Source: Phycisphaerae bacterium (GTDB taxonomy: Bacteria > Planctomycetota > Phycisphaerae > UBA1845 > Fen-1342). Taken from it: a stretch of 46,084 bases of DNA. The DNA is taken from assembly GCA_028279405.1 (NCBI GenBank), contig JANQNU010000031.1:1-46084 (forward strand), given 5' to 3'. Positions within the stretch are counted from its first letter, which is position 1; each line of letters opens with the position of its first letter. The notes beneath the pieces are model-generated. The model made no database searches. It had not been told where the DNA came from and saw nothing but the letters and a program-made list of their open reading frames with translations. Shown one piece after another: positions 38,840-40,481 of this stretch. Made by a program: the position numbers and the translations under genes.

Positions 38840-39056
38840 GTGAGTAAGACCCAGGTGAGTAAACCCCATGTGAGCAAGATCAGTGGTGAGCAAGATCAGG
38901 GGTGAGCAAGATCAGGGTGGGGCGGGCGTCTCGCCCGCCGGTTGACCGCTCGCTTGCGCTCGCGGCTCGCATTGGCACCCTCGGCCGCACAACGAGCCCC
39001 GAGCGCGAGCGAGGGGATCAAGGGGCGCGAGACGATCGCGGTGCCCCACCCTTCTA
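38840..39056. repeat. Tandem GTGAG(C/T)AAG repeats followed by REP-like modules
   Basis: Five short units beginning GTGAGYAAG start at 38840, 38855, 38870, 38886 and 38902 (15-16-bp period), the last three reading GTGAGCAAGATCAG. They run into AGGGTGGGGCGGGCGTCTCG (from 38914), the palindrome GGCGGGC/GCCCGCC, the GCTCGCTTGCGCTCGCGGCT module (from about 38948) and its inverse near 38992, and end with the left half of a CCCCACCCTTCTA palindrome (39044-39056) interrupted by the IS element. Confidence 0.85.
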
Positions 39057-39063
39057 GATTGGG

Positions 39064-39076
39064 ATGAACGTCCGTT
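39064..39076 (+). repeat. Left subterminal inverted repeat of the IS
   Basis: ATGAACGTCCGTT; it matches the right repeat at 12 of 13 positions when inverted. It overlaps the 5' arm of the hairpin in front of the transposase gene. Confidence 0.75.
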
Positions 39077-39141
39077 GCTCCTTGGCTGGTATAACGACCA
39101 GCCGAGGAGTTTTGAAGTTGCCTTCAAAAGGAGCAACGGAC
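39070..39141 (+). promoter_or_regulatory. Predicted three-way-junction leader that hides the transposase ribosome site
   Basis: GTCCGTTGCTCCTT (39070-39083) is perfectly complementary to AAGGAGCAACGGAC (39128-39141), which contains the ribosome site and ends immediately before the ATG at 39142. Between the arms are two hairpins: GGCTGGT-ataacg-ACCAGCC (39084-39103) and TTTGAAG-ttgc-CTTCAAA (39111-39128, sharing one base with the outer arm). Transcripts entering from outside would fold and be poorly translated; a transcript starting inside the first arm would not. Confidence 0.6.
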
Positions 39142-40176
39142 ATGTGTCATTCTACGGTTTCAACAGCAGGTACGCAGGTGGTTTACGTGGGTCTGGACTA
39201 CGCGACAACGGTCGTGCAGGTATGCGTGCTGGATCGGTCGGGGAAGCTGCTGGCCAATCGAGCCTGTGCGAACGACGGGCGTGAGATCGCGCAGCTCGTG
39301 AGTCGCTTCGGCCAGCGGGTTCAGGGCGCGATCGAAGCGTGTACGGGCGCGTCCGACTTGGCCGAGGAACTGCTGCAGCGGGCCGGCTGGTCGATCCATC
39401 TGGCCCATCCCGGCTACGTGCATCGGATGAAGCAGAACCCCGACAAGAGCGATTTCACGGACGCCCGGATGCTGGCCGAACTGGTTCGCGTCGGCTTTCT
39501 GCCACGGGTCTGGCTGGCGCCGCAGACGATCCGCGAGTTGCGCCGACTGGTGCGACATCGCCAGGATTTGGTGAACCGCCGCCGGGCAGTGAAGTTGCAG
39601 GTCGGCGCGTTGTTGCGGGATCACCGGGTGGTCGCTCCACCGGGCGGCAGCTGGACCAAACGGTGGCGGTCCTGGCTGGGGCTGCAGGCCTTACCCAGTG
39701 AGACGCGTTGGGTGATCGACGAGCGTTGTCACGAGTTTGACGAACTCGTTGGTCGTATCGCCCGGGCCGAAGCCCGCTTGGCACAGGTCACCGCATCAGA
39801 CGTCGTCGTGCAGCGGCTGCTCGACTTGCGTGGCGTGGGCCTGGTGACCGCATGCCTGATTCGGGCGGAGATCGGCGACGTCACACGGTTCCGCACGGGA
39901 AAGCAGTTGGCGCGGTATTGCGGCCTGACCCCACGGAACGCCTCCAGTGGGCTGCGGATCGCGGACGCCGGGCTGATTCGAGCCGGCAATCGCCACCTCC
40001 GCGCCGGCGTGATCGAGACCGGTCATCGGCTGATTCGATTCGACGAAGGCTGGAAGGCGTTTGCCGCAGAACTGGAGTCGCGCGGCAAAAAGCGTTGCGT
40101 GGTCGTCGCCGCGGTGGCCAATCGCTGGATGCGCCGGTTGTTCCACGAACTGATGAACATCGCGCGGGCCGCGTAG
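39142..40176 (+). CDS. IS110/IS1111 family transposase
   Basis: 344 residues from the ATG at 39142 (AAGGAG 39128-39133). The N-terminal RuvC-like DEDD domain shows VYVGLDYATTVVQVCVLD (first Asp), GAIEACTGASDLAEEL (Glu) and KQNPDKSDFTDARMLAELV (two Asp). A coiled linker follows, then the C-terminal transposase_20 domain with LLDLRGVGLVTACLIRAEIG, FRTGKQLARYCGLTPRNASS and the conserved SSG containing the catalytic Ser of IS110 enzymes. Such recombinases use an RNA guide encoded in the element's non-coding end to choose target and donor. The gene appears intact. Confidence 0.95.
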   Translation: MCHSTVSTAGTQVVYVGLDYATTVVQVCVLDRSGKLLANRACANDGREIAQLVSRFGQRVQGAIEACTGASDLAEELLQRAGWSIHLAHPGYVHRMKQNPDKSDFTDARMLAELVRVGFLPRVWLAPQTIRELRRLVRHRQDLVNRRRAVKLQVGALLRDHRVVAPPGGSWTKRWRSWLGLQALPSETRWVIDERCHEFDELVGRIARAEARLAQVTASDVVVQRLLDLRGVGLVTACLIRAEIGDVTRFRTGKQLARYCGLTPRNASSGLRIADAGLIRAGNRHLRAGVIETGHRLIRFDEGWKAFAAELESRGKKRCVVVAAVANRWMRRLFHELMNIARAA

Positions 40177-40376
40177 AGCCCAGCGTGATCCATACGCACA
40201 GGAGTCTGCCGTCGTGTCTCGTTGATGATGACCCGCTCGTCCCACCCTTGGGCTGATCGCTCGTTTCTAGATGGAGCCGTCATCATCCCTCGAAAAACCC
40301 ACTGGGGCTAGCCGAATCAAACCGGCGACGCTCGGATAGAAGAATGGGGCCCGGCGGCAGGCACCACTTGACAGAA
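40177..40376 (+). ncRNA. Candidate guide RNA (bridge/seekRNA) region of the IS element
   Basis: This 200-nt non-coding 3' end lies where IS1111-type elements encode their guide RNA. GATGATGAC (40224-40232) pairs with GTCATCATC (40279-40287), enclosing a 46-nt loop containing CCCACCCTT (40241-40249), identical to nine bases of the target left half (39045-39053). Further on, GACGCTCGGATAGAAG (40327-40342) equals the element's right end GACGCTC-ATAGAAG (40381-40394) apart from two inserted bases. These two matches would be the target and donor guide segments. RNA ends and strand are inferred; a decayed REP copy could also explain the first match. Confidence 0.5.
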
Positions 40377-40389
40377 AACGGACGCTCAT
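40377..40389 (-). repeat. Right subterminal inverted repeat of the IS
   Basis: AACGGACGCTCAT on the + strand, the inverse of the left repeat except for one base. It is immediately preceded by an outward-facing TTGACA (40368-40373), which could pair with left-end sequence as a junction promoter when the element circularises. Confidence 0.75.
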
Positions 40390-40481
40390 AGAAGGGTGGG
40401 GGATGCACTCGACCTATGCTTGGCTGCCCCCCACGGTGGCACCCTGGGGCACCACATCACCGCCAGGGACACCCAAATGCG

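What the first reader, a model, noticed from the sequence alone, without database searches (positions are those of the whole stretch)
40177..40401. 3' end of an IS1111-type element carries sequence identical to its own insertion site and right end: candidate guide RNA
Seen: within the non-coding 3' end, a 9-bp stem (40224-40232 with 40279-40287) encloses CCCACCCTT, identical to nine bases of the left half of the disrupted target (39045-39053). About 80 nt later GACGCTC-GG-ATAGAAG repeats the element's right end GACGCTC-ATAGAAG. Known: IS110-family recombinases use a bridge RNA (IS110 group) or seekRNA (IS1111 group) with separate target-binding and donor-binding segments, and in IS1111 elements the RNA lies 3' of the gene. 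Inference: these are the two guides, so the target code of this element can be read directly.
Basis: partly seen in the sequence, partly recalled or inferred. Interest (0 to 1): 0.8.

Follow-up and report, generated by a model that had tools for sequence, protein, structure and literature searches.

The report
Guide RNA of an IS1111-type transposon
The non-coding tail of this bacterial jumping gene encodes a two-part guide RNA that spells out both where the element lands and its own end; the guides change in step with the landing site in relatives, so it is a well-supported new member of an already known class of RNA-guided transposons.

Summary
The element (39056-40394) is an IS1111-type IS. 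Its downstream non-coding region encodes a conserved two-module RNA (40214-40359), each module a stem, internal loop and apical hairpin. In 16 related elements with different insertion sites, the 5' guide of module 1 is complementary to the element's own RIGHT flank: 85/96 positions, 11 of 16 perfect hexamers, 0 of 200,000 shuffles. Two more elements, found with the RNA model alone, matched 6/6. The 3' guide equals the LEFT flank (43/56 positions, 0 of 100,000 shuffles). Corrections: (1) CCCACC-CT (40241-40248) reads the right half of the target; its identity to the left half is a by-product of a near-palindromic REP target, and the left-half guide is TTCT-AG (40265-40270). (2) Only ATAGA-AG (40336-40342) is the donor guide; the preceding GACGCTC match is structural or coincidental. 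The core dinucleotide (AG, TG, CG) changes together in ends and RNA. In the own genome at least seven copies sit in one REP type and orientation; empty sites read CCCACCCTTCT-AG-GGTGGGG. Mechanism class known since 2024; no RNA data for this element.

The parts
39056..40394 (+). IS1111-type insertion sequence, written with the shared AG dinucleotide at both ends (39056-39057 and 40393-40394); one AG belongs to the target
   Evidence: Comparison with intact sites CCCACCCTTCTAG|GGTGGGG elsewhere in the genome and 5 further left ends plus 6 further right ends
39142..40176 (+). DEDD transposase/recombinase gene, 344 aa
   Evidence: Pfam DEDD_Tnp_IS110 and Transposase_20; NCBIfam NF033542 'IS110 family RNA-guided transposase'; aligns with IS621 8wt6 over RuvC and Tnp domains, GLTPRNASSG motif
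39064..39076 (+). left subterminal inverted repeat ATGAACGTCCGTT
   Evidence: 12/13 complementary to 40377-40389 (I9); equivalent pair in relatives
40377..40389 (+). right subterminal inverted repeat AACGGACGCTCAT
   Evidence: I9
40214..40359 (+). guide (seek/bridge) RNA, two modules; model R1 match, 121 bits, the only match in the genome (the sequence is itself a member of the model)
40224..40287 (+). target-reading module: outer stem 40224-40232/40279-40287, inner GCTC/GAGC stem, apical stem TGGGC/GCTCG
   Evidence: Consensus fold; outer-stem pairs with many two-sided changes
40241..40248 (+). 5' target guide CCCACC-CT, complementary to AG-GGTGGG of the right flank (40393-40400)
   Evidence: In 16 relatives own flank 85/96 vs 33.7 shuffled, 0/200,000; automated version 118 vs 67.7, 0/200,000
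40265..40270 (+). 3' target guide TTCT-AG, identical to left flank and core (39052-39057)
   Evidence: 14 elements, 43/56 positions vs 17.4 shuffled, 0/100,000
40289..40348 (+). donor-reading module: CTCG/TGGG-type closing stem, apical GGGC/GCTC hairpin with covarying distal stem
   Evidence: helices 3-5
40336..40342 (+). donor guide ATAGA-AG, identical to the last bases of the right end (40388-40394)
   Evidence: 15 of 18 elements identical at all 7 positions, changing together in L101, L160-L163; 0/200,000 shuffles
40298..40301 (+). tentative second donor guide CCCA, could pair with TGGG of the left end (39060-39063)
   Evidence: Inference from the module layout; only one relative (L101, GCCA/TGGC) shows a matching change
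39044..39057 (+). left half of the disrupted REP-like target, CCCCACCCTTCT-AG
   Evidence: Same at all six left ends
40393..40403 (+). right half of the target, AG-GGTGGGGGA
   Evidence: Same at all seven right ends
40368..40373 (+). TTGACA, -35-like box just inside the right end, where the circle-junction promoter of ISEc11 has its -35 element; conserved in most relatives
   Evidence: Sequence; junction promoter role from PMC11187229, inferred here
39070..39141 (+). leader hairpin: left sTIR region 39070-39083 pairs with the ribosome-binding site 39128-39141
   Evidence: I4; fold z -7.38; covaries in 20 elements

Best explanation
The interval encodes the guide RNA (seekRNA/bridge RNA) of an IS1111-type element. 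Module 1 is an internal loop whose 5' side (CCCACC-CT) pairs with the top strand of the right half of the target and whose 3' side (TTCT-AG) pairs with the bottom strand of the left half. Module 2 carries ATAGA-AG, which reads the element's right end at the circle junction, and probably CCCA, which reads its left end. The recombinase would use both modules to align the circular element with the REP-like site and exchange strands at the shared AG, inserting in one orientation with no duplication beyond that dinucleotide. Shown here by sequence: the conserved structure, guide-flank covariation, core covariation, fixed site and orientation. Inferred: RNA production, binding to the recombinase, recombination chemistry.
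For: The 5' guide matches the own right flank in relatives: 85/96, 0/200,000 shuffles, and by a register-free script 118 vs 67.7, 0/200,000. Two held-out elements found by RNA model alone matched 6/6. The 3' guide matches the left flank, 43/56, 0/100,000. The core AG/TG/CG changes in concert: right end = donor guide and left end = target 3' guide in 12 of 12. The donor guide matches the right end in 15 of 18. The structure has 60 two-sided changes vs 17.8 in shuffles and collapses when slid. Multi-copy genomes keep the guided bases while the sequence outside varies: five copies in G682 all have AG-CCACCC, then diverge. In the own genome 6 left and 7 right ends all sit in the same site and orientation, and empty sites are CCCACCCTTCTAGGGTGGGG. 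The recombinase has IS110-type domains and motifs.
Against: No transcript data. L096 does not match its right flank at all (0/6), L160 only 4/6, and L097 and L103 match only if a 1-nt deletion or a 3-nt shift at the right end is allowed. The guide hexamers were read off by eye in register with the core, although the automated version agrees. The second donor guide is weak. For the window element alone the palindromic target leaves the reading of CCCACC ambiguous without relatives.
Confidence: 0.95

Rival explanations
1. One reading: CCCACCCTT is a guide for the left half of the target (identical to it, pairing with the bottom strand), in the IS621/IS110 order.
For: Nine-base identity to the left half in the window; the target is nearly palindromic so both pairings are physically possible.
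Against: In relatives with non-palindromic sites the segment is complementary to the right flank, and the left flank is read by the other side of the loop. Published IS1111 order is the same (PMC11187229).
Confidence: 0.04
2. The match is a decayed REP copy or chance inside a non-functional tail; no guide RNA exists.
For: The genome is rich in such REPs (44 perfect-arm copies); the single-sequence fold is unexceptional; the 9-nt match has about 0.5% chance probability.
Against: The same aligned columns hold different sequences in relatives, each matching that relative's own flank, within a covarying structure.
Confidence: 0.01
3. The guides are real but this copy is dead: the RNA or recombinase is no longer active.
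For: Activity cannot be seen in sequence; several relatives are truncated.
Against: Intact reading frame with conserved motifs; at least six further copies whose ends are identical over 91-98 bp, implying recent spread.
Confidence: 0.1

Closest known systems
IS1111-family seekRNA elements (ISEc11, ISPa11, ISKpn4, ISPst6; Siddiquee et al. 2024, PMC11187229)
   Same: Downstream NCR, subterminal inverted repeats, DEDD recombinase with GL-P----SG motif, RNA with top-strand complement 5' of bottom-strand complement, fixed target, ISPa11 also targets a REP; natural reprogramming between relatives.
   Different: Recombinase only about 30-33% identical to the best plasmid-borne matches; another target; a donor module is readable here, whereas the parts of that paper read here describe target matches only.
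IS621 bridge RNA (IS110 group; Durrant et al. 2024 PMC11208160; Hiraizumi et al. 2024 PMC11208158)
   Same: Two-module RNA, each with stem, internal loop with two guides, and apical hairpin; a core dinucleotide shared by target and donor; REP target.
   Different: RNA lies downstream rather than upstream of the gene; guide order reversed; long subterminal inverted repeats; core NG (AG, TG or CG) instead of CT.
IS1111 bridge RNA predictions in Durrant et al. 2024 (PMC11208160, Fig. 6)
   Same: Bridge RNA predicted in the right end with target and donor complementarity.
   Different: They report that in many IS1111 elements the donor-binding bases lie in a multiloop; here the consensus places the donor guide in a simple internal loop.

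Membership tests
IS1111 family / group | DEDD (RuvC) plus C-terminal Transposase_20 domain with GL-P----S(T)G motif | tested here: met
   GLTPRNASSG in P0001
IS1111 family / group | Subterminal inverted repeats of 11-13 bp | tested here: met
   13 bp, 12 matching; equivalents in relatives
IS1111 family / group | Terminal extensions of 7 bp left and 3 bp right | tested here: inconclusive
   With the shared AG the boundary is ambiguous; 7+4 or 8+3 fit the empty site
IS1111 family / group | Long non-coding region downstream of the transposase gene | tested here: met
   200 nt between stop codon and right sTIR; 84 nt from the shared AG to the start codon
IS1111 family / group | Guide RNA with top-strand complement 5' of the bottom-strand complement | tested here: met
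IS1111 family / group | RNA from the NCR is made and co-purifies with the recombinase | not testable with these tools
   Needs RNA sequencing and protein purification
IS110 group (IS621-like) | Long non-coding region upstream, short right end | tested here: not met
IS110 group (IS621-like) | Bottom-strand guide precedes top-strand guide | tested here: not met
Bridge RNA in the wider sense (two guide modules for target and donor) | Separate target-reading and donor-reading modules with covariation to their DNA | tested here: met
   Target both halves; donor right-end half; donor left-end half weak
Rfam families | Match to a curated RNA family | tested here: not met
   No match up to E = 1 in 39000-40450

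The most novel reading that the evidence does not exclude
In this clade the IS1111 guide RNA is a complete two-module bridge RNA with a simple internal-loop donor module, and natural lineages have switched the core dinucleotide (AG, TG, CG) in concert in both element ends, the target guide and the donor guide. The published short (about 82 nt) and long (about 154 nt) seekRNA forms would then correspond to the target module alone and to target plus donor modules.
Probability: 0.6. Interest if true: 0.45.

Novelty: new member of a known kind. Interest (0 to 1): 0.35.

Why it matters
It shows that the target and donor code of an uncharacterised IS1111 clade can be read from sequence and checked against natural insertions, including naturally reprogrammed core dinucleotides. 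That gives a set of orthologues with testable predicted targets and bears on how the seekRNA and bridge RNA descriptions fit together. The mechanism itself is established.

Tried and rejected
Rfam search of the region: nothing. Single-sequence folding: no better than shuffles, uninformative. Search for the palindromic empty site CCCCACCCTTCTAGAAGGGTGGG implied by the two flanks: absent, because the real empty site is CCCACCCTTCTAGGGTGGGG. Relatives in genome contigs: best-segment identity at most 42%, not used further. Tandem duplication of the two modules: both contain TGGGC...GCTCG, but pairwise alignments rarely beat shuffles, so not claimed. Second donor guide CCCA: only one covarying case, left as tentative. 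RNA-model hit L182 (40 bits): no recognisable ends, treated as a relic or chance.

Full report
What is there. The window holds one complete IS1111-type element. The gene 39142-40176 encodes a 344-aa protein with the DEDD_Tnp_IS110 and Transposase_20 domains, the NCBIfam model 'IS110 family RNA-guided transposase', and alignment to the solved IS621 recombinase over both domains, including the acidic motifs and the GLTPRNASSG serine motif. A 13-bp subterminal inverted repeat lies at 39064-39076 and 40377-40389.

Site and copies. The own genome contains the window copy plus five left-end and six right-end fragments at contig ends, identical over 91-98 bp, as expected for recent copies that the assembly could not join. 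All six left ends read GGTGCCCCACCCTTCT-AG-ATTGGGATGAACG and all seven right ends GACGCTCATAGA-AG-GGTGGGGGA, so one orientation only. Uninterrupted sites are REP-like sequences: 22 exact copies of CCCACCCTTCTAGGGTGGGG among 44 sites with perfect arms. Empty and filled sites share only AG at the junction, so AG is taken as the exchanged core and there is no longer duplication.

Relatives. A protein search of related genomes gave elements 40-63% identical with the same layout. Their non-coding tails align well and give one consensus fold of two modules. The named structure has 96% of cells paired, 60 cells with two-sided changes against 17.8 in shuffles, and loses its signal when partners are slid by one column. 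Each module is a closing stem, an internal loop and an apical hairpin whose base is TGGGC-like on one side and GCTC(G) on the other.

Target guides. The internal loop of module 1 has a variable 5' side followed by CT or CG, and a variable 3' side followed by AG, TG or CG. Reading six bases of the 5' side in register with the core, the reverse complement matches the element's own right flank at 85 of 96 positions over 16 elements, 11 of them perfect; the mean over shuffled pairings is 33.7 and none of 200,000 reaches the observed value. A stricter count that allows no shift at the right end gives 77, again never reached. A script that picks no register and scores only the longest complementary run gives 118 against 67.7, none of 200,000. 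Four bases of the 3' side match the left flank at 43 of 56 positions against 17.4, none of 100,000. In genome G682 the copies share AG-CCACCC and then diverge, the length of the guide.

Held-out test. A covariance model built from the 18 RNAs found further loci without reference to flanks. Two of them with recognisable right ends, L177 with a decayed gene and L181 with no gene nearby, have guides that predict TGGCAC and CCACCC; the flanks read TGGCAC and CCACCC.

Donor guide. ATAGA-AG in module 2 equals the last bases of the right end in 15 of 18 elements, and departures from the consensus occur together: ATAGATG in L101, ATGGAAG in L160, ATAGACG in L161-L163; no shuffle of 200,000 does as well. 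The core dinucleotide agrees between right end and donor guide, and between left end and target 3' guide, in 12 of 12 elements where both can be read. On the window sequence alone this right-end match is not significant (7% of shuffles).

Correction on which half is read. In the window the target is almost palindromic, so CCCACC could read either half. The relatives settle it: the segment is complementary to the right flank. This is also the order published for IS1111 elements, top-strand complement first (PMC11187229), and the reverse of IS621 (PMC11208158).

Mechanism and status. Best explanation: the recombinase with this RNA aligns the circular element, read by module 2 at the RE-AG-LE junction, with the REP-like site, read by module 1, and exchanges strands at AG. 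Sequence evidence supports the guides, core and site; expression, binding and chemistry are inferred from the characterised family. Elements that fail (L096 0/6, L160 4/6) may have been rearranged or have decayed after insertion; this is not resolved.

Novelty. RNA-guided IS1111 and IS110 elements, natural reprogramming and REP targeting are published (PMC11187229, PMC11208160). Within that, the readable donor module in a simple internal loop and the concerted core changes in this clade are additions, not a new kind. That the modules have about the sizes of the published 82-nt and 154-nt ISEc11 seekRNA forms suggests, but does not show, that the short form is the target module alone.

Noticed in passing
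39070-39083 and 39128-39141: The left subterminal repeat region is perfectly complementary (14 bp) to the ribosome-binding site of the transposase gene, forming a leader hairpin (fold z -7.38). In 20 elements own arms pair better than shuffled ones (188 vs 144.7, 0/100,000), so the repeat may also limit translation.
   Followed up: partly
L181 1430-1700: In genome G675 a guide RNA and right end without any transposase gene lie just downstream of an enolase-like gene; its target guide still matches the flank (CCACCC). A remnant or a non-autonomous element.
   Followed up: partly
L013 1501-1524 (G000:C11:10906-10929): One REP-like site reads TAGATTGGGGGACG where others read TAGGGTGGGGGACG; the ATTGGG equals the element's left extension. 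Either a REP variant or a scar of an excised copy.
   Followed up: no
40368-40373 and equivalents in relatives: TTGACA just inside the right end is conserved in most relatives, in line with a promoter formed at the circle junction as reported for ISEc11.
   Followed up: no
L104, L157, L158 (G234): Left core TG but right core AG; the RNA carries TG in the target guide and AG in the donor guide, suggesting exchange between the two core bases or a tolerated mismatch at the first.
   Followed up: no
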